From positions 8,612,942 to 8,676,941 of the forward strand of contig NZ_CP107796.1 in assembly GCF_036345995.1 (NCBI RefSeq): a stretch of 64,000 nt of DNA, read 5' to 3'. This DNA is from Streptomyces sp. NBC_00557. GTDB lineage: Bacteria; Actinomycetota; Actinomycetes; Streptomycetales; Streptomycetaceae. Shown one piece after another: positions 16,670 through 63,986 of the stretch (positions within the stretch are counted from its first letter, which is position 1; each line of letters opens with the position of its first letter). Below the pieces are notes generated by a model. That model worked only from the letters and a program-made list of their open reading frames with translations, did no database searches and was not told where the DNA came from. The position numbers and the translations under genes were made by a program.

Positions 16670-16791
16670 CGGTTTTCCCTTGGGGCGGGACGAGTTGGAA
16701 GGTCGTGTCCGAGGCCCTGGGAGGATCACAGGCCGGGCCGGGCGTGGCCCGCCGGGGGTGGTGCGGGCGGTGATCTCCTGGCGTGGTGGGG

Positions 16792-19700
16792 ATGACGGTG
16801 AAGGGGATCACGGCGGGGCGTGAGCGCTATTACCGGCGTGACATCGCTGTGGGGGACGGGGCGCAGGGCGGTGAGCCGGCGGTGTCGTCGAGCGTGCCGG
16901 GGGTGCCGCCCGGGGTGTGGCACGGGCAGGCCGCCAAGGAGCTGGGGCTGTCCGGCATCGTCAGTGATACGCAGATGCGGGCCCTGTTCGGGCTCGGCAT
17001 GCACCCGAACGCGGAAGCGATCGCGGCCCGGGCCCTGGCCCGGGGTGCTTCCCTGAAGCAGGCCATGCGGGAGGCCAAGCTCGGCCCGGCCGTGCCGCAG
17101 CTCGCCCCGTCCTCCCCGCTGGACGAGGCGATCGAGCGGGTCCTGGAGCACGCCGACGAGCAGCTGTGCCGACCGCTGACGAAGGCGGAAAAACGGGAGG
17201 TGCGGATGCGCGTTGCGGCGCACGCCTTCGAGGCCGAGTACCACCGCGCTCCCGCGGACGGCGCGGAACTGGGCCGCTATCTGGCCGCCCGCACCGGCCC
17301 GCAGCGCAAGGCCGTCACCGGCTACGACCTCACCTTCTCCTCACAGGAGCTGACCTTGCTGTTCGCGCTGGGCGGCCCCGAGGTACGGCGCATCGCCCTC
17401 GAGGTCCAGGCGCAGGCCCGCTCCGAGACGCTGGCGTGGCTGGAGCAGAACTCGCTCGCGGTGCGTACCGGCCCGGGCGGTGTGGCCCAGCAGCGTGCCG
17501 AACCCGGGCTGCTGGCCACGGTCTATCTGCACTACGAATCCCGCGCGGGTGATCCGATGCTGCACGAGCACGCGGTGATCTCCCCGCGCGTGCGGGGGCC
17601 GGACGGGCGGTGGCGGAACCTGGACTCGCGGCTGCTGCTGCGGGATGTGGTCGTGGCCAGCGAGCTGTTCAACCAGCGCTCCCTGGAGCTGGTCTGTGCC
17701 CGGCTCGGGCTGGTGACGGAGGAGGTGGAGGTCACCCCGGGGCAGCGGCCGGTGATGCGGATCGCCGGGATCGACCCGCGCCTGCGCGCAGTGTTCTCCC
17801 AACGCGGCAGCGCGGTGCGCACCATGGCGCAGGCCTTGTTCGACGACTACCGGCGCCGTCACGGCCGCCAGCCGCACGGCCGTTCCCGCTACACCCTGCT
17901 CGAGCAGGCCCGCGCCCGCACCCGCCCGTCCAAGCGCAAGGCCCGCTCGCTGGATGAGCTGCTGGCCGCTTGGCGGCGCCGCGCGATCGCTGCCACCGAC
18001 CCCGAGACGGTTAACGGCCTGCTCGCCACCGCGCAGGCCGCCGCCCGCCATCGGGCCGTCCCGGTGGCCGTCGACGTCGGCGCGGCGGCCGAGCAGGTCC
18101 TGGCCGCGGTCGCCGAACGCCGTACCACCTTCCGCCGCCGGCATGTGCTGGCCGAAGCCCGCCGCTACCTGATGCGCACCCTGACCGGCGCCACCGCCCC
18201 GCCCGGCGCGGCCGAGGAGATCACCGACCGTGTCCTCGCGCACCATGACTGCCTGGACATCACCCCGCCCGAGATCAACCCCGCCCACCCGGACCTGCAG
18301 CGCGCGGACGGCACCAGCATCTACCGGCCCATCGGCTCGGCGACCTACACCACCCACACCCTTTTGGCGGCCGAGGACCGGCTCCTGGCAGCCGCCCGCA
18401 CCCACGTGATCCCGCCGGTGGGAAGGGGCACGTTCGCCCGTGTCGCCGCCCTGCACCGCCGCCCGATGGACGCCGGACAGCGCGCCCTGGCCTCCTCCTT
18501 CGCGCTGTCGGAGAAGCTGCTGCTGGCCGGCCTGGGACCGGCGGGCGCGGGAAAGACGACGGCGATGCGGCTGGTGGCCCGCGCCGTGGACGCCGCCGGC
18601 GGCCGGCTCATCCCGCTCGCACCGTCCTCCCGGGCGGCGCAGGTCCTCGGCGACGACCTGAACCTGCGCGCCCACACCCTGCACTCCTGGCTCCACCAGC
18701 GCGCCCGGGCCGCCGAAGGAAAACAGGTCGAGGGCACCTTCCAGCTGCGCCCCGGCGACATCGTCCTGGTCGACGAGGCGGGCATGGCCGGCACCCTCCT
18801 GCTCGACAAGATCCTCGCTGATGCGGCCGCCGCGGGTGCGGTGGTGCGGCTGCTGGGCGACCCGCACCAGCTCGCCGCCGTCGAAGCCGGAGGAGCGTTG
18901 AGGCTGATCGCCCGGGCGGGCGGCGCCGTCGAACTCGACCAGCTGCACCGCTTCCGCACCCCCGGCGAGGCGGAGGCCTCCCTCATCCTGCGCGACGGCG
19001 ACGACAACGCAGGCGCCTTCGACTGGTACCGGACCAAGGGCCGGATCGTCGCCGGCACCTACGAGGCGATGTGCGACGCGGTGTTCACCGCCTGGGCCAA
19101 CGACCTCGCCCGAGGCCGCACGTCGCTGATGACGGCCGCCGACACCGAGACGGTCACCGCGCTCAACGAGCGGGCCCAGGCCTGGCACATCGCCGCGGGC
19201 ACCATCGACACCCGCCGCAGCACCGCGCTGCGCGGCGGGCAGCAAGCGCACGTCGGCGACACCATCGTCACCCGCCTCAACCGGCGCCGCATGCTGGTGC
19301 GCGGCGGCCGCGACTTCGTCAAGAACGGCGACACCTGGACCATCACCAAACTCCTGCCCGGCGGCGACGCGGTGGCCCGCCACACCCAGCACCGCGGCCG
19401 CATCCGCCTGCCCGCCGCCTACCTCGCCACCCACTGCGAACTCGGCTACGCCTCCACCATCCACCGCGCCCAGGGCATGACCGTCGACACCTCCCACGCC
19501 CTCGCCTCCCCCCGCTCCACGAGGGAAGGCGTCTACGTGCAGCTCACCCGGGGAGCACGCACCAACCGCCTCTACGTCGCCCTCGAAGACGGCGACCACC
19601 TGAACGACGTCCTGCGCTCCATCGCCGCCCGCCGCCGCGCCGAGTTGTCGGCCACCGAATCCATCACCGCCCTGCAACGCGAGATCAGCGCCCCCGGCCA

Positions 19701-21483
19701 GCTGTCCGCCGAGTTCGCCGACGCCAGCGAACGCGCCACCCGCGCCCGGCTGACCGGCCTGCTCCAGCACACTCTCGGCGCCGACCGTGCTGCCTGGTTC
19801 ATGGCCGCAGACGCCTACCCCGCCCTCATCCGCGCCCTGAACGACGCCGAACGCGCCGGATACGACCTGCCCCGCCTGCTCGCCCACACCGTGCCCCGGC
19901 GCGGCTTCGCCGACGCCCACGACCCCGCCGCCGTCCTCACCTGGCGCCTGCGCCAGCACCTGGACGACGCATCCGCAGCCCAGGCCGAAGCCGGTCACCG
20001 TCCCCTGGCCGAGCTGTCCCTGGCCCAACTGCACACCCTGAAACGGCTGGCCGCCGCCCACCGCGCCGCCGCCCGCGAGGCACTCAAGGCCGCCGACGCA
20101 GCCTTCACCCACCTGCCCGCGCCCATCACCACCCGCACCGGCGACACCCACCCCGCCTGGGAAAACCGCCCCTTCGGCGACCTGACCCGCACCCAACTGG
20201 CCGCCCAACTCGCCCACGCCCGCGCCCAGATCCGCCACTCCCAGAGCACTGGAGCACCGCTGTCGGACACCGCCCGGCACGTCATCACCGCCCTCATGGC
20301 CGAGTCCCAGCTGCGCCGCGCCATCAGCTGGCGGGACGCCGCCCGCGAGGACTACCAGCGCGACCGCGCCACCCACCACGCCGCCACCGGCGGCTCCACC
20401 TCACTGGCCGCCATCCGCCGCACCCTGCAGCAGCGCCGCACAGCGACCCTCCAGCGCCAGCAGTGGGCGCGCACCCACCTGGCCCGCGCCGACGCCGTCA
20501 CGAACAAGATCGACGCCGAACTGCGCCTACGCGACCGCCTCCCCGACCAGCCGCCGTACCGCCCCAATCACCGCGCCGAGATACCCGACTGGGTCGCCGA
20601 CCGGCACGCCCTGACCCACCCCGACACCCCCGAGCACTGGCGCACCCACCTGGCCGAACGCCACCGCATCCTGGCCCGCTCACTCACCGACCGCGGCCAC
20701 ACCCTCGCCACGAAGCCGCCCGCCTGGGCCCGCCCCCTCGGCCCGCCGCCACCCACCAGCTCCCCCCGCAGACGTGCCGCCTGGGCCACCACCTGCGCCC
20801 TGGTCGAACTGTGGCGCACCCGCCACGCCATCACCGCCACCGGAATCGGCCCACGCCCCGAGGACCCCGACGACGCGGCGGCCTGGGACGACCTCAACGC
20901 CCGCGTCCGCGCCCTGACCGCACGACGCCGCCCGATCCACCAGCCGCTGCCGCCCGACGCCCCCGCATCCGCCGTCATCGCCCACGCTCTCGCCCACCTC
21001 GACACACCCCCGCCCGCCGGGGCGCTGCACGACCACCCGGCCCTGCGCGACCCCCACGGCATCGCCCCGCTCTCCCACGCCGCCCTGCACGCCCGCACCG
21101 CCCGGCGCGCCCTGGCCGCCGTCCTCGCCGGCGAGCCGCTGCCCGAGGACTGGATGGACCAGATCACCGCCCCCGGAGAAGACGACGAAGACGAACAACG
21201 CATCTACACCAGACTGCTGACCGCGATCGGCGACTACCGCCGACGCCACCACCGCGCCGGCCCCGACCTCCTCGGGCCACGCCCCCACGGCGTCGACGGC
21301 CAGGAGTGGGACCACCTCACCGACGCCCTCGACCTCTACACCCACGCCCGCGTCCAACACCGCCTGGAACAACTCCGCAACCGCACCCAGGCCGAACGCG
21401 CAGTCCTGCTGCCGACCACCTCACCACTTCGACAGCCGCCGCCGGACACCGACGGCCCCGGCCGGCGCACCCCAGCCCGCTGA
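16792..21483 (+). CDS. traA: MobF-type conjugative relaxase-helicase (TraA/TrwC-like)
   Basis: Nicks oriT, stays bound to the DNA 5' end and unwinds the transferred strand. Near the N-terminus the tyrosine pair in GRERYYRRD (about residues 13-14) matches the catalytic YY of actinobacterial TraA. VTGYDLTFS leads the TrwC relaxase domain, and the metal-binding histidines are in HYESRAGDPMLHEHAV (about residues 246-259). The RecD-like helicase has Walker A GPAGAGKT (about 582-589), Walker B VLVDEAGM (about 660), LLGDPHQLAAV, and the C-terminal motifs GYASTIHRAQGMTVD and VQLTRGARTNRLYVAL. About 550 C-terminal residues are helical and unassigned. GTG 16783, three codons earlier, is an alternative start. 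Confidence 0.93.
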   Translation: MTVKGITAGRERYYRRDIAVGDGAQGGEPAVSSSVPGVPPGVWHGQAAKELGLSGIVSDTQMRALFGLGMHPNAEAIAARALARGASLKQAMREAKLGPAVPQLAPSSPLDEAIERVLEHADEQLCRPLTKAEKREVRMRVAAHAFEAEYHRAPADGAELGRYLAARTGPQRKAVTGYDLTFSSQELTLLFALGGPEVRRIALEVQAQARSETLAWLEQNSLAVRTGPGGVAQQRAEPGLLATVYLHYESRAGDPMLHEHAVISPRVRGPDGRWRNLDSRLLLRDVVVASELFNQRSLELVCARLGLVTEEVEVTPGQRPVMRIAGIDPRLRAVFSQRGSAVRTMAQALFDDYRRRHGRQPHGRSRYTLLEQARARTRPSKRKARSLDELLAAWRRRAIAATDPETVNGLLATAQAAARHRAVPVAVDVGAAAEQVLAAVAERRTTFRRRHVLAEARRYLMRTLTGATAPPGAAEEITDRVLAHHDCLDITPPEINPAHPDLQRADGTSIYRPIGSATYTTHTLLAAEDRLLAAARTHVIPPVGRGTFARVAALHRRPMDAGQRALASSFALSEKLLLAGLGPAGAGKTTAMRLVARAVDAAGGRLIPLAPSSRAAQVLGDDLNLRAHTLHSWLHQRARAAEGKQVEGTFQLRPGDIVLVDEAGMAGTLLLDKILADAAAAGAVVRLLGDPHQLAAVEAGGALRLIARAGGAVELDQLHRFRTPGEAEASLILRDGDDNAGAFDWYRTKGRIVAGTYEAMCDAVFTAWANDLARGRTSLMTAADTETVTALNERAQAWHIAAGTIDTRRSTALRGGQQAHVGDTIVTRLNRRRMLVRGGRDFVKNGDTWTITKLLPGGDAVARHTQHRGRIRLPAAYLATHCELGYASTIHRAQGMTVDTSHALASPRSTREGVYVQLTRGARTNRLYVALEDGDHLNDVLRSIAARRRAELSATESITALQREISAPGQLSAEFADASERATRARLTGLLQHTLGADRAAWFMAADAYPALIRALNDAERAGYDLPRLLAHTVPRRGFADAHDPAAVLTWRLRQHLDDASAAQAEAGHRPLAELSLAQLHTLKRLAAAHRAAAREALKAADAAFTHLPAPITTRTGDTHPAWENRPFGDLTRTQLAAQLAHARAQIRHSQSTGAPLSDTARHVITALMAESQLRRAISWRDAAREDYQRDRATHHAATGGSTSLAAIRRTLQQRRTATLQRQQWARTHLARADAVTNKIDAELRLRDRLPDQPPYRPNHRAEIPDWVADRHALTHPDTPEHWRTHLAERHRILARSLTDRGHTLATKPPAWARPLGPPPPTSSPRRRAAWATTCALVELWRTRHAITATGIGPRPEDPDDAAAWDDLNARVRALTARRRPIHQPLPPDAPASAVIAHALAHLDTPPPAGALHDHPALRDPHGIAPLSHAALHARTARRALAAVLAGEPLPEDWMDQITAPGEDDEDEQRIYTRLLTAIGDYRRRHHRAGPDLLGPRPHGVDGQEWDHLTDALDLYTHARVQHRLEQLRNRTQAERAVLLPTTSPLRQPPPDTDGPGRRTPAR

Positions 21484-49901: not shown

Positions 49902-51170
49902 TCACCCGCTGCGCAAGGACCCTGGCGGTGCTGGGGGATCCGGGGGCTGGGGGCGGATGCGCAGGAAGGCGCAGCGCTTGGTGGTCGGGTTGAGGACGGC
50001 GACTTTCAGCGGAGTGCGGGCGGCGGCCTGGATGCGGGCGAGCCAGGTCTGGCTGGGCACGAGGATCGTCAGCTCTGCTGGCCACTGGGCCAGTGCTCGA
50101 GGATCGGGGCACACCACACCGGCGAGGGTGAACGCACGGCCCGGGCGCGGCCTGCTGTAGACGAGCAGTCCGTTGCCGTGGGAGGGGCTCTGGACGCCGT
50201 ACTCGACCGGTTTGCCGGAGGCGGTGCGGACCAGTTGCGTGAAGGCGGGCCACACCTGGGCGTCTATGCCTGCGTGTTCGAGGAAGGCGGCCAGACGTTC
50301 CTGCTCGGCCTGCCGCTCCTGTGCTTGCTGCAGGGCGTCGTGGAGGCGCTGTTCGGCGGCAGCTGCCCGCGCCGCGGCAGCCCGGCGGGCCTGTTCGGCA
50401 GCCCGGGCACGTGCGGCGGCCTCGTCATCCGCCTCCAGCTTCGCCCGGGCGGCCGCGAGTTGCCGGTAGGCGTCGGCCGTCCACCACACCGTGCCGCCCG
50501 GGCCGGTATGGGGATGCACGCGCCCCTGGAGGATCCACCGGATGGCATCGCCGAGCGGGCAGGTGATGTGGGTCCATCCCGCCTTCCCGGCCAGCGTGCG
50601 CGGGTCCCAGGTGTAGCGAGCGATGCCGTGCCGCACCGTCCAGCCGGCCCCGCGTTCCTCGGGGTACTCCACCCGCAGCGAGGGCACGGCACGCTGCCAC
50701 GGCCGCCCCTGCAGCCCGACCCAGCACACCCCCACACCATCGCGCGCATAGCGGTCGGTGCGCATCCGCGCATCCTCCGGCGTCATCGGCGACAGCTGCG
50801 CTTCCAGGGCCATGAACGCACGGCCCTGCTCATCGAAGACCAGCACGTCGGCACGCCAGTCCGCCCGTGGACTGCTCACCTCCAGCTCTGCTGTGAACCC
50901 CGCTGCCCGGGCTGCCGTAGCCAGCTCCAGCTTCAGCAGGTGGTGTTCGTACGACTCGTTCGCCAGCTCGCAGTCACGGGGCCGCTGCTGGTGGTAGAAG
51001 TGCCGGGCACGGCGTGAGGAGACCCGCGCGCACACCCGGCCCCCACACTCCGGGCACGCCAGCCGCAGCCCCGTGACCCGGTGGACGTCGGCCCAGGCAC
51101 GGCCACACCCGAGATCGTCCAGCGACGCATCCAGCCGCCCCCAGTCGGCGTGGACCGCGGTGAATCCCAT
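49902..51170 (-). CDS. CoiA-like competence/nuclease family protein
   Basis: ATG 51170 is decided by GGGGAGGGCGG. The N-terminal half has LACPECGGRVCARVSSRRARHFYHQ, the metal-ribbon start of CoiA-like proteins, then ESYEHHLLKLELATAARAAGFTAELEVSSPRADWRADVLVFD...FMALEAQLSPMTPEDARMRTDRYARDGVGVCWVG. The A-D-V-L and E-x-Q pair form the PD-(D/E)xK-type nuclease core of this family. A coiled coil of Ala/Glu/Arg follows at about residues 240-300, then a C-terminal domain. It probably acts on incoming or damaged DNA. Confidence 0.82.
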   Translation of the reverse strand: MGFTAVHADWGRLDASLDDLGCGRAWADVHRVTGLRLACPECGGRVCARVSSRRARHFYHQQRPRDCELANESYEHHLLKLELATAARAAGFTAELEVSSPRADWRADVLVFDEQGRAFMALEAQLSPMTPEDARMRTDRYARDGVGVCWVGLQGRPWQRAVPSLRVEYPEERGAGWTVRHGIARYTWDPRTLAGKAGWTHITCPLGDAIRWILQGRVHPHTGPGGTVWWTADAYRQLAAARAKLEADDEAAARARAAEQARRAAAARAAAAEQRLHDALQQAQERQAEQERLAAFLEHAGIDAQVWPAFTQLVRTASGKPVEYGVQSPSHGNGLLVYSRPRPGRAFTLAGVVCPDPRALAQWPAELTILVPSQTWLARIQAAARTPLKVAVLNPTTKRCAFLRIRPQPPDPPAPPGSLRSG

Positions 51171-51410
51171 CCGCCCTCCCCAGGCGACGATGCCGACCCA
51201 GCCCCTCGGCGCGCAATACGCACACCGCTGCCTGAGCAGTGCCCCGGCGATGCCGTACGGCTTCTGCAGCGCTGTCGTTCCTCGGCCGGCGGCACCCTGG
51301 ATGCGCGCGGGGTGCTCACCCCGCCGAAAACCGCCCACGCAGCTCTCCCCGGGTCGGCCGGCGGACCCGAGCGAGGACGCTTGCGTCCTCGCGGCTTAGG
51401 ATCCGTTGCT

Positions 51411-51973: not shown

Positions 51974-52272
51974 GCGGTTCCCCTCCCTGTGTCCGCGCCA
52001 GCATGGCAGAGGGCTACGGCACCTCGGGCCGGGTCGTCAGCACGGTGCCTGCGACCTCGCCAGCCAGGGGGACGCGGGGCTTCACCGTGTTGCCGACGGA
52101 GCCGGTCCGGCGGCGTCGGGCATGCCCGGTTCCGCGTCCCGGGCGGGCCACGGATGCGCGACAACGGCCGATCCTGCCGGGCGTTCCTCCTCGGCCGCCC
52201 ACCGCTGAAGTCCCCTCAACCGCGGACGTCGCCTGGCGGCGGGCCGGGCTGAAAGTTCCCCGATCCGGGTAT

Positions 52273-52288
52273 TCGATCCTATGTTCGA
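52273..52288 (+). promoter_or_regulatory. LexA (SOS) box before the polymerase-like gene
   Basis: TCGATCCTATGTTCGA matches the actinobacterial LexA operator TCGAAC-N4-GTTCGA at 11 of 12 half-site positions. It lies 32 bases before the ribosome binding site region of the gene at 52321, in the right place to block its promoter. Confidence 0.75.
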
Positions 52289-52320
52289 TAATCTGGAGAG
52301 GGAGACAGGAGGTGAACGGC

Positions 52321-53328
52321 GTGAGCGGCAAGACATCCCCGGTGTCGACCGTGATGCACGTGCGCTGTCCGGACCGGCTGCCGGAGCAGGTGTATCGCCT
52401 CATCCTGGAGCGGATGGCTGAGCTGTCCCCCCTCGTACAGGCTTTGCCGCCCGGTGCTGCTCTCGTGGAGCTGAAGGGGGCCTTGCGCTGCCATGGTGTG
52501 GGTGCGGACGTGCGCCGTCTGGGCGAGATGCTGCGGGTGCGGACCCTGACCCGTCACGGTGTCGACCTGCGGATCGGGATCGGCCCGACCGTCAGCGTGG
52601 CTGCGACCGCCTCCGCCCAGGTCCCCGGGCCCGGGGGAGTGCTGGTGGTGGCCCCCGACCGGGCCGCCGAATGGCTCGCCGACCTGCCTGTGGAGGCCCT
52701 GCACGGCATCGGACCTAAGCAGGCGGACGTGCTCCACGACTACGGGATCCACACCGTGGGCCTGCTCGCTGCCGTCCCGGCGCAGACCGTGCAGCGGCTG
52801 CTGGGCGGACGGGCCGGACGCCTGGCCCGCGACCGCGCCCGCGGTATCGACCCCCGCCCCGTCGTCCCGCGTTCCCTGCCCGCTTCCGCTACCGTGCACT
52901 GCTCCTTCGCCCGGCACACCCTGGACGGGGCCGACGTGCGGGCCGCCCTGCTCGCTCTGGTCGTCCGGCTCGGGCGGACGCTGCGCCGCCGCGGGCAGGT
53001 TCCCCAGGCCCTGACGCTGACGCTGACCTTCGCCGGGACGGGCCGCTGGAGCAGGACCCACCGGCTGCCCGAGCCCTCCGCGCACGACGACGACCTGCGA
53101 ATGGCCGCCTACCGGCTCATGGACGCCGCAGGCCTGCAGCGGGGCCGCCTGACCGGGCTGTCCCTGCGGGGCGAGGACCTCCGTGCCGCCGACACCGTCG
53201 CCCAGCAGATCACCCTGGACGACGCCCGTGAGGCGCGTCTGGTGGCCGAGGCCGCCGTCGACCGGGTCCGTGACAAGTTCGGCGCCGGTGTCATCGGTCC
53301 GGCCGCCATCTACCGGGCCGCCTCCTGA
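52321..53328 (+). CDS. Y-family polymerase-like protein without catalytic acids (ImuB-like)
   Basis: GTG 52321 follows ACAGGAGGT at six bases. The palm end, thumb and little-finger parts of the Y family are clear: VDLRIGIGPTVSVAATASAQVPGPGGVLVV, LPVEALHGIGPKQADVLHDYGIHTVGLLAAVPAQTVQRLLGG (HhH), ARGIDPRPVVPRSLPAS. The N-terminus with the first catalytic Asp is missing (the protein begins MHVRCPDRLPEQVYRLILERM), and where active enzymes have S-x-D-E-A-F-L-D this reads PPGAALVELKGALR. It is thus probably non-catalytic, like the ImuB adaptor of the mutasome. A LexA box precedes it. Confidence 0.82.
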   Translation: MSGKTSPVSTVMHVRCPDRLPEQVYRLILERMAELSPLVQALPPGAALVELKGALRCHGVGADVRRLGEMLRVRTLTRHGVDLRIGIGPTVSVAATASAQVPGPGGVLVVAPDRAAEWLADLPVEALHGIGPKQADVLHDYGIHTVGLLAAVPAQTVQRLLGGRAGRLARDRARGIDPRPVVPRSLPASATVHCSFARHTLDGADVRAALLALVVRLGRTLRRRGQVPQALTLTLTFAGTGRWSRTHRLPEPSAHDDDLRMAAYRLMDAAGLQRGRLTGLSLRGEDLRAADTVAQQITLDDAREARLVAEAAVDRVRDKFGAGVIGPAAIYRAAS

Positions 53329-53395
53329 CCCGCCTGGCCTCCGCGGCTGCCGGCAGCGTCCCCCCGGCCGCCTGCTGTCTTCGGGCGGCCGGTTA

Positions 53396-53411
53396 TCGAA
53401 TCAGTGTTCCC
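53396..53411 (+). promoter_or_regulatory. probable LexA box before lexA paralogue
   Basis: TCGAATCAGTGTTCCC matches TCGAAC-N4-GTTCGA at 9 of 12 half-site positions. It lies 62 bases before the ATG at 53473, so the gene is probably autoregulated. Confidence 0.55.
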
Positions 53412-53472
53412 TTTGGTGTGGTTCGCGGGTTACGGTCCACCTCAAGCAAGATCCCGCCACGGGGGAGCCTTC

Positions 53473-54159
53473 ATGCACCTCACTGAAACGACTGGTCGGG
53501 CCGGGCGCCCGCGGGGAGTCGTCACCGGCCCCGACGGTCTCACCGCTCGGCAGATGGCCATCGTGCGTTTTATCGAGAGCACCGTCGCCCGTCAGGGATA
53601 CCCGCCCTCGATGCGCGAGATCGGCGAGGCGGTCCGGCTCAAGAGCACCTCCTCCGTCGCGCACCAGCTCCTCGCCCTGGAGCGCAAGGGCGTCCTCTAC
53701 CGCGATCCCCATCGCCCCCGCGCCTATCGCGTCAGGCCGCACCGGGACACCGGCTTCGGTGAAAGCCCGGCCGATGCCTTCCCTCAGGCGGCCGACGTGC
53801 CCCTCGTCGGCCGGATCGCCGCAGGCGCACCGCTCCTGGCCGAGGAATCGGTGGAGGACGTACTGCTGCTGCCCCGGCGTCTCGTCGGGGAGGGCCGTCT
53901 GTTCGCGTTGCGAGTCGTGGGGGACAGCATGGTCGAGGCGGCGATCTGCGACGGTGACATCGTCACCGTCCGCCGTCAGGACTCCGCCGACCACGGCGAC
54001 GTCGTGGCCGCCCTCATCGACGGCGAGGCGACAGTCAAACGGCTGCGCCGTGAGGACGGCCATGTCTGGCTGATGCCGCACAACCCGGCCTACGCACCGA
54101 TCCTGGCTGACGAGGCAGCCATTCTCGGCAAAGTCGTCGCCGTGCTGCGCAGCCTGTGA
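53473..54159 (+). CDS. lexA: LexA repressor paralogue
   Basis: SOS repressor that cleaves itself when RecA filaments form. Residues 22-75 ([51 protein letters not shown]) are the winged helix-turn-helix, almost as in chromosomal Streptomyces LexA. The cleavage site is A117-G118 in VGRIAAGAP; the catalytic pair is Ser152 (GDSMVEA) and Lys189 (ATVKRL). All parts needed for cleavage are present. ATG 53473 follows GGGGGAG. Since Streptomyces chromosomes carry their own lexA, this is presumably a plasmid-borne second copy controlling the neighbouring polymerase-like gene. Confidence 0.93.
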
Positions 54160-54247
54160 CCCGGACCGCCCGGCCGCAGCTCGGGGAGGTCGGCCTGTCA
54201 CGGACCTTGCGCCGGGCGTTGTCAGTGCCGGCGGCGATGATGAGCGC

Positions 54248-54801: not shown

Positions 54802-54875
54802 CGCGGGGTGGAGCAGCTCGGTAGCTCGCTGGGCTCATAACCCAGAGGTCGCAGGTTCAAATCCTGTCCCCGCTA
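54802..54875 (+). tRNA. initiator tRNA-fMet (CAT)
   Basis: The cloverleaf is complete: acceptor CGCGGGG/CCCCGCT, D stem GAGC/GCTC, anticodon arm CTGGG-CTCATAA-CCCAG, T arm GCAGG-TTCAAAT-CCTGT, discriminator A at 54875. Two initiator marks are present: an unpaired 1-72 position (C and T) and three consecutive G-C pairs at the base of the anticodon stem. CCA is not encoded. An initiator tRNA on an accessory replicon is unusual. A perfect 18-base terminator follows eight bases later. Confidence 0.95.
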
Positions 54876-54882
54876 CGAACAC

Positions 54883-55799: not shown

Positions 55800-57602
55800 C
55801 TACAACAGCCCCACCTCGGCCTGGGTGTGACCGAAGGCCTGCGCCATGTGGGCCAGGGCCCGGCGCAGCAGGTCTTGGCGCTCGGTGTGCCGCATGGTGG
55901 GCTCGGCGGTGATCGTGACGGCCATCTCCGGTCTGGGGCCTCGCCCGGTAGGGCCGAGCGGGCTGAGGTCGATGAGGGAGCCCAGGCCGGGCGTCACACC
56001 GGTGTCGTCGCTGCGCTCGGCGCTCAGGCGCAACTCGGTGGTGGGCGGTGCGGCCCAGCGCCGACCGGCCGGATCACCGAGCACTTCGGGCAGGAGTTCG
56101 GCGGCCGTCTGCCAGGCATGCAGCAGAACATCCTGGACCTCATCGAAGCCCAGCGGTGCGCTCTGGTGACCGCCCAGCGCTTCCGCCCAGGCGGCACTGT
56201 CTTCGATCAGGACGTCCGCGCACGAGACGACGGCGGAGTCCATCGTGCCGGGACACGCGATCATGCAGGCGGCGGAGAGGGCCGACCGCCCGTCAGGTGC
56301 CCGGAAAATGGTCGTGTAGCTCGCGGCGTGCAGCGAGTTGTCGTGCGGGCCCGGCTCCCACCGTCCCGCCGGGAGGTTGCCGCCCCGGCGCTGGGACAGC
56401 ATCGTCACGGCACCGGCCAGCGGACTGAAGGCAAGCTGCTGCTCAAGCTGCTGGCGCCGGGCCTTCGTGATCTGAAGGGTGGAAGCCTCCGCCCAGGGGA
56501 GGGTCACCAGGGCGCGCAGCCGCAGCTGCGGTTTCGGTATCTGGCTCGTCCACCTGAGCGCGGACCGGGTCATGTCCAGACCGAGGTGCACCGCAGGCTG
56601 CCACCGCCAGACACCGTTCTGGGAGCGCACGAGATGGCCGGGACCCCACCTGCCACCATCCAGCTTCACGAGGCTGCCGTCGCCCGTCACCGCTCCGGAA
56701 GCGCTGATGGGGTATCCGATCGCCGCGAGCGGATCCCCGCTGGCGTCAGCCCGGCCCGCGTCGACGATCGCCTGCCACACGGGCGTGCGCACCACGACGG
56801 GCGGGCGCGGGGGAGCCACGCACAGCACCCACCCCGGCTCTCCGTCCAGGAAGTGGTGCAGATCCTGCAGCGCCGCTGTTCCGTGGCGATACGCCTCACC
56901 GGCCGGCTGCCCCAGGCCCACATCGGCCAGCTTTTCGTACGCTTCGAGCATCTCGCGTTCCCACTCGGGCAGGCCCTGACCGATCCGCGGCGCGCCCGTC
57001 CACTGCGAGCCTGCGACGGCGTCATGCAGGAGCTGGGACAGCGTCTCGGTCGTGGGCATGCCGGAGGCGGCGATGCCGGCGGAGAGCAGGCGCTGGATCT
57101 CGGTGCGCGGCAGCCAGTGCGTCCCGTCCGCCTCGCGTACGGGCACCGCGACCGTGTCCGTACGGGGCGTGCCCGGCTTGCCGACCGGCGCGGCCACGAC
57201 GAACAGACAGTTCTCGTCCTGAGCGGGGACATCGATGTAGAGCACGCACGATCCCTGCTGGTCGTCGGACCAGTCCACCCTCACCCCGCGCGGGGCAGGA
57301 GTGATGTGCGCGCGGATCAGCTTGCGGATCCGATCGCGGTCGACCGAGGCGCGGTCGACCGGAACGATCTGGTCGAGAATCTCCACATCGTCCACCAGCC
57401 GCGTAGCGATCCCCAGGACGAGGACACCACCGCCACCGTTGGCAAACCCGCAGACGTCCTTGGCGAGTTCCTCAACTGCGCGCGGCTCACGCAGCGCATA
57501 CGGCACGGCCTTGGCGTCCAGCCACTGACCCTCCGGCTGCTCCAGCAGCAGGGCCGGGTTGTGTGCACGCAGCGCAGCCCGGACGGCCTCGAGATCCATC
57601 AT
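55800..57602 (-). CDS. Schlafen AlbA_2-domain protein (600 aa)
   Basis: Starts at ATG 57602 (ATG ATG pair); the leftward extension is poor. Residues 10-60 read NPALLLEQPEGQWLDAKAVPY...AVEELAKDVCGFANGGGGVLVLGIATR, the AlbA_2/Schlafen signature (E-x-x-x-x-x-D/E-x-K ... F-A-N-x-x-G-G), associated with nucleic-acid binding and, in some proteins, RNase activity. The next part, up to about residue 180, continues the domain. The remaining 400 residues are unassigned. Many bacterial proteins of this type sit in defence islands. It is encoded 148 bases upstream of the antitoxin gene on the same strand. Confidence 0.8.
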   Translation of the reverse strand: MMDLEAVRAALRAHNPALLLEQPEGQWLDAKAVPYALREPRAVEELAKDVCGFANGGGGVLVLGIATRLVDDVEILDQIVPVDRASVDRDRIRKLIRAHITPAPRGVRVDWSDDQQGSCVLYIDVPAQDENCLFVVAAPVGKPGTPRTDTVAVPVREADGTHWLPRTEIQRLLSAGIAASGMPTTETLSQLLHDAVAGSQWTGAPRIGQGLPEWEREMLEAYEKLADVGLGQPAGEAYRHGTAALQDLHHFLDGEPGWVLCVAPPRPPVVVRTPVWQAIVDAGRADASGDPLAAIGYPISASGAVTGDGSLVKLDGGRWGPGHLVRSQNGVWRWQPAVHLGLDMTRSALRWTSQIPKPQLRLRALVTLPWAEASTLQITKARRQQLEQQLAFSPLAGAVTMLSQRRGGNLPAGRWEPGPHDNSLHAASYTTIFRAPDGRSALSAACMIACPGTMDSAVVSCADVLIEDSAAWAEALGGHQSAPLGFDEVQDVLLHAWQTAAELLPEVLGDPAGRRWAAPPTTELRLSAERSDDTGVTPGLGSLIDLSPLGPTGRGPRPEMAVTITAEPTMRHTERQDLLRRALAHMAQAFGHTQAEVGLL

Positions 57603-58060
57603 CGACACCCCGGAAGTATCCCGGCCCCACCCGCTCGAAGGACAGGAATTTAGCGCCATCAGCTCAGGCAGCACCTGCTTCGCTGCGCCGACGGCGGCAT
57701 GTGAATGCGGCGGCGGCAATGGTCGCAGGTTAGGGGCCTCGACTGGATGTCGACGGCTTTCGACCATCACGAGGCTGATCGCGACAGAGCATGACGAAAC
57801 CGGTCACGCTTCGGTCGTGATCGGTCATATGTGGCGGAGTCCTTGCGCAGCTCATCCGCCACCCGGATCATGGTGCACATCTCGCGCACGGTGCGCGCTC
57901 TTGGCAGTCATCCCCACCGTTGACTGGCAGGTGAACTGAGCGCACGCTCGAGCCGGCAGAACCAGCGTATCTGAGACACAAAAGGCGTCCTGACCTGAGG
58001 GCTTGGCGTCGCACCGAGGTGGGGTGGTGCGGTACGCGCAGCCCGGGTTCAAGGATCCTT
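57603..58060 (+). other. intergenic between divergent genes, with imperfect dyad
   Basis: This is 458 bases between the divergent AlbA_2 and TPR protein genes. It is less GC-rich than average. ACCGGTCACG at 57799-57808 mirrors CGTGATCGGT at 57816-57825 with one mismatch and may be an operator. No gene seen. Confidence 0.4.
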
Positions 58061-61452: not shown

Positions 61453-62067
61453 TCAGGACTGGAACCCGATCACGCCATACCCGGGACGTTGAGCCGCCGC
61501 CACGATCCAGTCCACACAGTCGGACAGTGCGTTTTCCACCTCGGGTTCCAGCGATGGTTCAAGGCCGGCGCGGTTGGCCGTCTCGAACTGCTCCAGTGCC
61601 GTAACGCACTGCCCGTGCGTCCATTGCCCGCAGCCTGGAAAGTCCGACCACGGCAGCCCATCAGGCATCCCCTCCCACATGCCGAATTCCGCGATCGACA
61701 CAGCCGTGACCTTCAGCGCTTTCAGGCCTTCATCCACCGCCTCCAGCCACCCCGCGCGATACGGACTGAACGAGCTGTTGTCCAAGTGCGACCCAGTCAA
61801 CGAACACAGCCGCTTATACGCATAGCCGTACTGGAACGCTCCCGGGGAACCACCCTGAGGGAACGGGCCTCCGTGTACCACGGTCTGCAGTGCCTCGAAC
61901 GAGGTCGGCGCACCCTGCGCGATCGCCTGGTCGAACCACTGGTCAGCCCTTGTCAGTTCGTCCCCGAACTGGTCACTGATCACCTGCAGCAGCTGATCAT
62001 CACGAGAGCCCACCAGCGCCCGAGTGGCCGCCACATCCAGCAAGTACACGCTCAACGACATGCTCAT
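61453..62067 (-). CDS. DUF7691-like protein (204 aa)
   Basis: The sequence MSMSLSVYLLDVAATRALVGSRDDQLLQVISDQFGDEL...FEALQTVVHGGPFPQGGSPGAFQYGYAYKRLCSLTG matches by memory a family of Streptomyces proteins annotated DUF7691, whose function is unknown. LPWSDFPGCGQWTHGQCVTALEQFETANRAG near residue 150 is also typical. ATG 62067. Soluble, length usual. No partner gene recognised next to it. Confidence 0.68.
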   Translation of the reverse strand: MSMSLSVYLLDVAATRALVGSRDDQLLQVISDQFGDELTRADQWFDQAIAQGAPTSFEALQTVVHGGPFPQGGSPGAFQYGYAYKRLCSLTGSHLDNSSFSPYRAGWLEAVDEGLKALKVTAVSIAEFGMWEGMPDGLPWSDFPGCGQWTHGQCVTALEQFETANRAGLEPSLEPEVENALSDCVDWIVAAAQRPGYGVIGFQS

Positions 62068-62559
62068 TCACACGACCGTATCGGTCAGCACTGACATTGC
62101 CCTACGGGCGCGGCGGCGGGCGAGGGTGGCGAGGTGTGCGGCCGCGGCGGGGTGCCGTGCACATCGGGTGGTCCGTCGGGCGGCTCACGGTGGAGCAGCT
62201 CGCCGATCACATCACGCAGCCCCGCCCCGCTGCACCGTGGTGGCGACGGTGACAGTCGGGCGAGGGTGATCACGCGTTCGCACTGAGGGCCTCTGACCGG
62301 CGCGAGGAACTTAGGGCAGTCAGGTCGGTTGCAGGCTGCCTGTCGACCGGTTGGGGCGGAAGGTGGCACCGTACTGGCGGGCGAAGTGGTTGGCGTCCGC
62401 GACCGGTCCTACGTATCAGCGGGGCGGGCGGGTGGCGCGGGATCGCCCCGGCGGTCGCGGGCGGCGTCCCGACACTGTCAGTCCCGCCGCAGCCCGTACT
62501 GCCGTCCCCGTTGCCGGGACGGCCTGCGCGGGGCCGGCGGCAGCCGCTACGTTGGGCCG
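62068..62559 (+). other. intergenic between divergent genes
   Basis: This is 492 bases with no convincing gene on either strand. It consists of mixed short direct repeats of GCGGCGG type. It should hold promoters for the genes on both sides, but none was recognised. Confidence 0.4.
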
Positions 62560-63696: not shown

Positions 63697-63986
63697 CGGG
63701 CCGCAGGCCCGTTGGGTGGGCCGCGCGGAGCGTGGCACACCTTGTGACGCGGAGCGTCACCGTGGCTGGAGCGAAGCGGAGGCCTCCAGGACGGCCGAAG
63801 GCCGGCCGTGGCCCGCAGCGCGGGCTACGCTCCTGGAGCGCAGCGGAAGGAGCGTCAACGAGACTGCGAAGCAGGCTCGTTGGGCGGGGAGCGGAGCGAG
63901 CCGCTCGCGCTCACGCGGAGCGGGGCGCAACCCCCGCGCGCAGCGCGGGGGTTCGCTGGCTCCGGGCGCAGCCCGGGGACCCGTCC
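63697..63986 (+). repeat. telomere-like cluster of hairpins
   Basis: At least eight perfect hairpins follow one another, each with a three-base loop: CGGGCC-GCA-GGCCCG (63697-63711), GTGACGC-GGA-GCGTCAC (63744-63760), CGGCC-GAA-GGCCG (63792-63804), GCCCGC-AGC-GCGGGC (63811-63825), an AACGAG/CTCGTT arm enclosing CTGC-GAA-GCAG (63857-63881), GAGCG-AGC-CGCTC (63894-63906), an 11-bp arm with GCA loop (63929-63953), CCGGGC-GCA-GCCCGG (63962-63976). Dense GNA-loop hairpins at a replicon end are the hallmark of Streptomyces telomeres. The extreme terminal palindrome (CCCGC-type) is not seen at the very end. Confidence 0.8.

What the first reader, a model, noticed from the sequence alone, without database searches (positions are those of the whole stretch)
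52273..54159. Plasmid SOS unit: dead Y-family polymerase and LexA paralogue, both with LexA-type boxes
The polymerase-like gene has a near-perfect LexA box (TCGATCCTATGTTCGA) and lacks both parts of the catalytic site, as in ImuB. The next gene is an intact, cleavable LexA with its own weaker box. ImuB usually acts with ImuA and DnaE2, which are absent here, so the plasmid protein may recruit the host DnaE2, or act as a competitor. A self-contained damage-response switch on a conjugative linear replicon would let it change mutation rate or transfer timing after DNA damage.
Basis: partly seen in the sequence, partly recalled or inferred. Interest (0 to 1): 0.7.

Follow-up and report, generated by a model that had tools for sequence, protein, structure and literature searches.

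The report
SOS-controlled dead polymerase beside second LexA
Near the tip of a Streptomyces linear chromosome, a catalytically dead, shortened relative of a DNA-repair polymerase sits under a DNA-damage switch beside a spare copy of the switch protein LexA; its kin are common on linear plasmids and some sit next to the error-prone polymerase DnaE2, which suggests a helper that brings another polymerase to damaged DNA.

Summary
Window 52321-53328 encodes a 335-aa Y-family protein without any of the three catalytic acids and without the fingers segment. A strong LexA box (52273-52288) abuts a -10-like hexamer. Gene 53473-54159 is a complete, apparently cleavable LexA with a weak box. The location was misread: the window is the telomeric right end of an 8.68-Mb chromosome, not a plasmid, though the arm is plasmid-like. 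The protein is not ImuB. It belongs with Streptomyces DinB2, the inactive Y-family protein translated with dnaE2; in six of 295 genomes a window-type relative is the gene directly after dnaE2. The same kind of box lies before 59 of 67 mobile relatives, 56 of them with no lexA seen nearby, and the pSVJI1 relative is published as a LexA target induced by mitomycin C. So host LexA probably runs the family; the second LexA, with the same recognition helix, is an addition rather than a private switch. Best reading: a mobile, SOS-induced, non-catalytic subunit that couples clamp and RecA to a host polymerase, most likely DnaE2 (inferred). New variant of a known kind; a link with linear replicon ends stays open.

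The parts
52273..52288 (.). LexA (SOS) box TCGATCCTATGTTCGA of the Y-family gene
   Evidence: 1 mismatch to TCGAAC-N4-GTTCGA, only site with <=2 in the window; top 14-mer by matrix from 13 published boxes; box at the same place in 59 of 67 mobile relatives
52289..52294 (+). -10-like hexamer TAATCT directly after the box
   Evidence: TANNNT directly after the near box in 58 of 59 relatives that have it, one base later in the other; promoter itself inferred
52321..53328 (+). Inactive, fingerless Y-family protein (iPolY, Streptomyces DinB2 type), 335 aa
53206..53220 (+). Codons of QITLD (residues 296-300), clamp-motif-like, Q and D invariant in the alignments
   Evidence: invariant columns Q296 and D300 in 62 and 56 rows; clamp binding inferred
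53221..53325 (+). C-terminal tail with RecA-N-terminus-like helix (model residues 301-320)
   Evidence: model helix 301-320; weak match to own RecA N-terminus, 25 of 1000 shuffles as good
53396..53411 (.). Weak LexA-like box TCGAATCAGTGTTCCC before lexA
   Evidence: rank 109 in window; core GAAT-N4-GTTC kept in the four lexA-paired loci compared
53473..54159 (+). LexA paralogue, 228 aa, cleavage site and catalytic dyad intact
   Evidence: 68% identical to the chromosomal LexA

Best explanation
This is an SOS-controlled accessory gene pair in a plasmid-like chromosome end. LexA (host copy, and probably the second copy too) sits on the box that abuts the -10 element and keeps the first gene off (operator shown by sequence and by published data on a relative; binding here inferred). 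After DNA damage RecA filaments make LexA cleave itself and the gene is switched on (inferred from the pSVJI1 relative). The product is a Y-family protein that cannot polymerise: the catalytic acids are gone and the fingers are deleted, while palm core, thumb, little finger, a clamp-motif-like QxxLD and a RecA-like tail remain (shown by alignment and model). It most likely works as a non-catalytic subunit that holds clamp and RecA and brings in a host polymerase, most likely DnaE2, as an alternative to the host DinB2 (inferred from relatives that occupy the place after dnaE2). The second LexA, itself with a weak box and the same recognition helix, would top up repressor after damage and damp or shorten the response (inferred).
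Against: No dnaE2 lies near the window gene; among the mobile loci searched only L031 has one nearby, as a 434-aa open remnant. According to the review PMC3901139 (section 7.4 read), deleting dnaE2 (imuC) in S. coelicolor changed neither UV survival nor UV mutagenesis nor end patching nor transfer. L135 has dnaE2 79.6% but a DinB2 only 47.5% identical to the own one and 39% to the window protein, so DinB2 can diverge fast beside dnaE2 without an exchange. dN/dS is 0.55 between window and L098 and 0.47 between the near-identical L012 and L074. The clamp motif ends in D instead of F. The RecA-like tail is weak for the window protein (25 of 1000) and not significant for L002 (156), L068 (101) and L008 (798 of 1000). 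The tree is a quick one with likelihood-test supports only and warns of long branches. Nothing was measured in this organism; the second LexA's role rests on sequence only.
Confidence: 0.5

Rival explanations
1. Linear-replicon end factor: the protein helps fill or protect telomere gaps of linear chromosomes and plasmids under damage, as an extra DinB2, by recruiting a polymerase other than DnaE2 or by shielding the ends.
For: PMC4513846 (passages) cites that DinB1 or DinB2 is needed for end patching of linear replicons, yet own DinB2 and its kin are fingerless and lack acids, so DinB2 would have to act without catalysis. Gene is 10.7 kb from the telomere. 16 of 16 iPolY plasmid records opened (of 133 with a match) are linear, against 5 of 7 opened for a LexA homologue, or 3 of 5 without the two that also carry iPolY. 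Of 12 listed mobile copies on contigs of 6.9 Mb or more, fragments and broken ones included, 10 lie within 0.55 Mb of an end.
Against: Accessory genes of Streptomyces lie in the arms and on linear plasmids anyway, the samples are small, and the match list is capped. Damage control does not fit a need at every replication. The Tsai 2012 paper itself was not held.
Confidence: 0.17
2. Competitor: the dead protein occupies clamp, RecA or DnaE2 and so lowers host error-prone synthesis, protecting the element from mutation.
For: Possible interaction parts kept without catalysis; coexists with a host DinB2 in the same genome.
Against: In L097-L101 a window-type protein is the one translated with dnaE2, and four of these five genomes have no other family match at E <= 1e-30, which fits a working subunit better than an inhibitor.
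Confidence: 0.13
3. Private switch: the second LexA recognises its own operators and the pair forms a self-contained damage-response circuit separate from the host.
For: The boxes of the lexA-paired loci have a TCGATC, TCGGTC or TCGGCC half where most other relatives have TCGAAT or TCGATT; box, iPolY and lexA are kept together in the window and in a second context, with DNA similarity limited to 52271-54176.
Against: Recognition-helix stretch STSSVAHQL is identical in host and second LexA; the other half-site GTTCGA is canonical in window, L012 and L013; 56 of 59 relatives with the box have no lexA in the held stretch.
Confidence: 0.06
4. Decaying polymerase gene without function, kept by hitch-hiking.
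For: Broken or partial copies exist: L063, the relic at C1:8118.7 kb, G091, G192; dN/dS 0.47 and 0.55 in two of seven gene pairs.
Against: dN/dS 0.20-0.32 in the other five pairs (four iPolY, one lexA), invariant residues, conserved box and length.
Confidence: 0.04

Closest known systems
Streptomyces coelicolor DinB2 / scDinB2-like iPolY (SCO1738, listed as dinP) with DnaE2
   Same: Inactive, fingerless Y-family protein of the same length; own chromosomal copy 41% identical; relatives at 57-61% sit after dnaE2, five with the same 4-bp overlap
   Different: Window gene stands alone in a chromosome tip, has its own SOS box and a LexA neighbour instead of dnaE2. That the own DinB2 is the counterpart of SCO1738 is inferred from the dnaE2 overlap
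pSVJI1 operon pvnz_37140-37135 of S. venezuelae (PMC9380542)
   Same: Linear-plasmid homologue (46.5%) behind a published LexA box, mitomycin-induced
   Different: Second gene of an operon after an 83-aa protein; no lexA annotated in the 13-kb stretch; called an error-prone DNA polymerase there, although it too lacks the acids in the alignment
[quoted passage not shown]
   Same: Catalytically dead Y-family protein under LexA control
   Different: No room for ImuB-C (about 50 residues remain after the last little-finger strand), DinB-like profile matches, fingers deleted
Operons of inactive or active Y-family proteins with imuB-C and/or dnaE2 and often lexA (PMC6511836, passages)
   Same: lexA beside a non-ImuB Y-family gene is a published pattern
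   Different: Here neither imuB-C nor dnaE2 is in the unit
Streptomyces LexA
   Same: 68% identical to the own chromosomal LexA, same recognition helix, cleavage site and dyad
   Different: Falls outside the chromosomal LexA group in a 26-row quick tree; own weak box

Membership tests
scDinB2-like inactive Y-family proteins (iPolY) | Y-family fold with catalytic acids lost | tested here: met
scDinB2-like inactive Y-family proteins (iPolY) | Groups with Streptomyces DinB2 | tested here: met
   41% to own DinB2 and 57-61% to relatives after dnaE2; shared deletion of about 64 residues. The published CLANS group itself was not rerun
scDinB2-like inactive Y-family proteins (iPolY) | Next to dnaE2 (often, per PMC12926913) | tested here: not met
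   dnaE2 is at C1:6.56 Mb, window gene at 8.67 Mb; met in relatives L097-L101 and G038
scDinB2-like inactive Y-family proteins (iPolY) | RecA-N-terminus-like motif in the tail | tested here: inconclusive
   25 of 1000 shuffles as good for the window; best RecA match lies in the tail in 62 of 91 rows; not significant in 3 of 5 tails tested
scDinB2-like inactive Y-family proteins (iPolY) | Clamp-binding motif like QxxLF | tested here: inconclusive
   QITLD, Q and D invariant, F absent
ImuB | ImuB-C region after the little finger | tested here: not met
   protein ends about 50 residues after the last little-finger strand (277-285); tail is one long helix plus a short end. No ImuB-C profile was run
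ImuB | ImuA in the genome | not tested
   own genome was searched for RecA (one match) but not for ImuA
Active DinB / Pol IV | Intact catalytic acids and fingers | tested here: not met
   NCBIfam Pol IV models score 135.6 bits or less against cut-offs of 256-399
LexA repressor | DNA-binding plus S24 domain over curated cut-offs | tested here: met
   TIGR00498 228.6 bits, cut-off 110.95; PF01726 and PF00717
LexA repressor | Ala-Gly cleavage site, Ser and Lys of the dyad | tested here: met
   IAAGAP, GDSM, ATVK present
LexA repressor | RecA-stimulated self-cleavage and operator binding | not testable with these tools
   needs purified protein

The most novel reading that the evidence does not exclude
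Linear replicons of Streptomyces carry and trade a damage-inducible, non-catalytic Y-family factor that can take over the DinB2 role at telomeres and at dnaE2, i.e. an exchangeable polymerase adaptor for linear DNA ends, and in one lineage have coupled it to a second LexA that retunes the host SOS response.
Probability: 0.13. Interest if true: 0.78.

Novelty: new variant of a known kind. Interest (0 to 1): 0.5.

Why it matters
It indicates that a protein class often annotated as a DNA polymerase in Streptomyces cannot be one, that accessory replicons spread it under SOS control, and that it is exchanged with the partner of DnaE2. This makes an open question testable: how DinB2, which is reported to support telomere filling, can do so without an active site, and whether linear replicons bring their own polymerase adaptors.

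Tried and rejected
ImuB as the family: rejected (no room for ImuB-C, DinB-like profiles). Plasmid location: rejected; window ends at C1:8,676,941 and bases 63828-63976 resemble, inverted, the left end of C1 and both ends of C2 at 86-87%. Phage origin: no tblastn match in 50,697 phage records. Ku or ligase partnership: HMMs built from opened plasmids matched Ku in 13 and ligase in 10 of 65 held stretches (some of which had seeded the HMMs), neither in the last 21 kb of the window; no background was computed, so no claim. DUF6233 (divergent, upstream) and DUF6292 (downstream) recur as neighbours but were not found at the window. RecA tail: kept as inconclusive. Independent occurrences of the iPolY-lexA pair: L012, L013 and L063 are one 20-kb context and L074 is identical to L013, so besides the window I count one context; a third is suggested only by equal contig length (20,260) of P0005 and P0127 of S. 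filipinensis. The group statistic for 'dnaE2' printed leaves out ungrouped rows and was not used. Eight of 67 mobile loci have no near box by my rule (L142, L095, L125, L123, L128, L068, L122, L124): L068 has its box before the preceding gene, and the start that my script took for L142 differs from the annotated one. Print status: searches (Streptomyces, linear plasmid(s), Y-family) found 0 papers, 92 (Streptomyces, linear plasmid, LexA) 7, 93 (ImuB, plasmid-encoded, DnaE2, inactive) 3, 98 (SCO1738) 2, 100 (fingers domain, Y-family, lacks, pseudopolymerase; three of four) 22 with 10 listed; of these I saw listings, plus passages of one; none of the titles or abstract starts shown names this pair. 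Papers: PMC9380542, PMC6511836, PMC12926913, PMC4513846 and PMC6637917 by passages, PMC3901139 by passages and section 7.4; Tsai 2012 not held, its content recalled or taken from PMC4513846 and PMC3901139.

Full report
What is there. The stretch 52273-54159 holds, in order, a LexA box, a -10-like hexamer, a GTG-started gene of 335 codons (52321-53328), a weak second box and an ATG-started lexA gene (53473-54159). The strong box is the only one in the window with two or fewer mismatches to TCGAAC-N4-GTTCGA and ranks first of 127,974 14-mers with a matrix from 13 published S. venezuelae boxes. The weak box ranks 109th and would not stand alone; its core is the same in the four lexA-paired loci compared, whose DNA is about 80% alike in this stretch anyway.

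Where it is. The genome search places the window at C1:8612942-8676941 of a two-contig genome of 9,019,680 bases, and the contig length listed for this protein is 8,676,941. The window is therefore the end of C1. Its bases 63828-63976 match, inverted, C1:3-152 and both ends of C2 at 86-87%: four telomere-like ends, so I take C1 as a linear chromosome and C2 (342,739 bases by difference) as a linear plasmid. The iPolY gene is 10.7 kb from the tip. The arm looks plasmid-derived: a TrwC-type relaxase with helicase domain lies at 16783-21483.

Its family. 701 proteins at E <= 0.001 were found among 7,994 scored candidates, 133 plasmid records, 129 of them Streptomyces, and 56 loci in the one-genome-per-species contigs. 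On contigs of 6.9 Mb or more I could place 12 listed mobile copies: own, G067, G127, G139, G207, G091, G107, G140, G192 and G269 within 0.55 Mb of an end, G206 and G027 not; G091 and G192 hold stops, G140 and G027 are partial. All 16 iPolY plasmid records opened are linear; of 7 opened for their LexA 5 are, two of which carry iPolY as well. This is suggestive and confounded by the habits of Streptomyces plasmids.

The place after dnaE2. In L097-L101 the gene that overlaps dnaE2 by ATGA is 57-61% identical to the window protein and 43-45% to the own DinB2, while dnaE2 itself is 78-79% identical to the own one. L134 and L131, with dnaE2 at 76.6 and 79.5%, have a DinB2 at 67%; L135 (79.6%) is an outlier with 47.5% to own DinB2 and 39% to the window protein. 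G038 is a sixth case, 57% and adjacent. L102 (55%) has dnaE2 about 1 kb upstream. In a quick tree of 91 rows L097-L102 form a group (98) inside the mobile side (98 for the 69-row group), with likelihood-test supports only and a long-branch warning that names L102 and L096 among the long rows (G038 was not in it). So the partner gene at dnaE2 has been exchanged, or the mobile family came from such a locus; either way window-type proteins are found translated with DnaE2. One mobile locus, L031 (S. curacoi), has a 434-aa dnaE2 remnant 1.4 kb upstream.

Regulation. Of 67 mobile loci with enough upstream DNA, 59 have a box with two or fewer mismatches at -15 to -75, 29 of these a second one further up; TANNNT follows directly in 58 of 59 and one base later in the other; 3 of the 59 have a lexA in the held stretch, which spans from 1.5 to 10 kb of flank. 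Shuffles predict 0.64 of 68 loci for a box of that quality in 130 bp. The rows are related, so these are not 59 independent events. The dnaE2-linked rows have such a box in 1 of 18, as expected if control lies before dnaE2. For the S. venezuelae plasmid homologue, the box TCGAACACGTGCTC named in PMC9380542 lies at L068:5711, 24 bases before an 83-aa gene that overlaps the homologue (the paper gives position -14), and the paper lists pvnz_37140 and 37135 with a ChIP-seq value of 1.22 and mitomycin induction of 15.35- and 7.52-fold (passages). I equate pvnz_37135 with vnz_RS37555 from the box, the gene order and its being the only match in that record.

The second LexA. It is 68% identical to the host LexA, with the same recognition helix and intact cleavage parts. 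LexA proteins 71% or more identical occur in ten of the other genomes of the 295 (my count of listed rows), and 34 plasmid records have one at 60-80% (a capped search). The pair iPolY-lexA is rare: own and G255 among 295, and three of 56 contig loci that prove to be one 20-kb context. Between window and that context DNA similarity in the held stretches stops at 52271 and 54176, i.e. at box and lexA end, so the cassette, with its operator, seems to have moved as a unit. PMC6511836 (passage) notes that operons of other Y-family genes with imuB-C or dnaE2 often include lexA, so a lexA neighbour as such is not new.

Mechanism. Shown: loss of catalytic parts by sequence, conserved operator and promoter geometry, exchange with the DnaE2 partner by sequence; selection is supported by dN/dS of 0.20-0.32 in four iPolY pairs and 0.22 for lexA, against 0.55 (window-L098) and 0.47 (L012-L074). 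Published for a relative: LexA target and induction. Inferred: recruitment of clamp, RecA and DnaE2, and damping by the second LexA. Against it stands the report, via PMC3901139, that dnaE2 deletion in S. coelicolor has no UV or end-patching phenotype; that, with the cited need for DinB1 or DinB2 at telomeres (PMC4513846), keeps the end-factor rival alive.

Novelty. The inactive nature of S. coelicolor DinB2 and a DnaE2-iPolY-RecA complex are published predictions (PMC6511836, PMC12926913; passages), and SOS control of the pSVJI1 gene is published. In the main text of PMC12926913 the words plasmid, LexA and linear have no occurrence. The mobile family as such, the fingers deletion, the exchange at dnaE2 and the LexA-coupled form were not seen in what I read. 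On checking, interest was lowered from 0.52 to 0.50 because a lexA neighbour is a published pattern.

Noticed in passing
window 63828-63976: Telomere-like end shared, inverted, with the left end of C1 and both ends of C2 at 86-87%; in the last 3 kb searched only about 150 bases are shared with the other chromosome tip
   Followed up: partly
window 54802-54876: tRNA-Met (CAT) about 9 kb from the chromosome tip, identical to three internal chromosomal copies
   Followed up: partly
window 16783-21483: TrwC-type (MOBF) relaxase-helicase of 1566 aa in the chromosome arm
   Followed up: no
window 61453-62102: A 650-base stretch with a DUF7691 gene is 84% identical to C1:53170-53819 in the other arm
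   Followed up: no
window 49902-51338 and 55800-57770: Neighbours: a CoiA-like nuclease protein and a Schlafen AlbA_2 protein
   Followed up: no
L004/L005 (C1:8118673-8119108): Degenerate remnant of a second window-type iPolY gene in the same chromosome arm
   Followed up: no
L063:9974-11841: In S. filamentosus the iPolY gene is broken while the lexA next to it is intact
   Followed up: partly
L031:7285-8589: dnaE2-like remnant 1.4 kb before a mobile iPolY gene in S. curacoi
   Followed up: partly
L007, L018, L142-L144 and others: DUF6233 gene divergent before and DUF6292 gene directly after many mobile iPolY genes; functions unknown
   Followed up: partly
G161: One Streptomyces genome with five matches to the family at E <= 1e-30
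   Followed up: no
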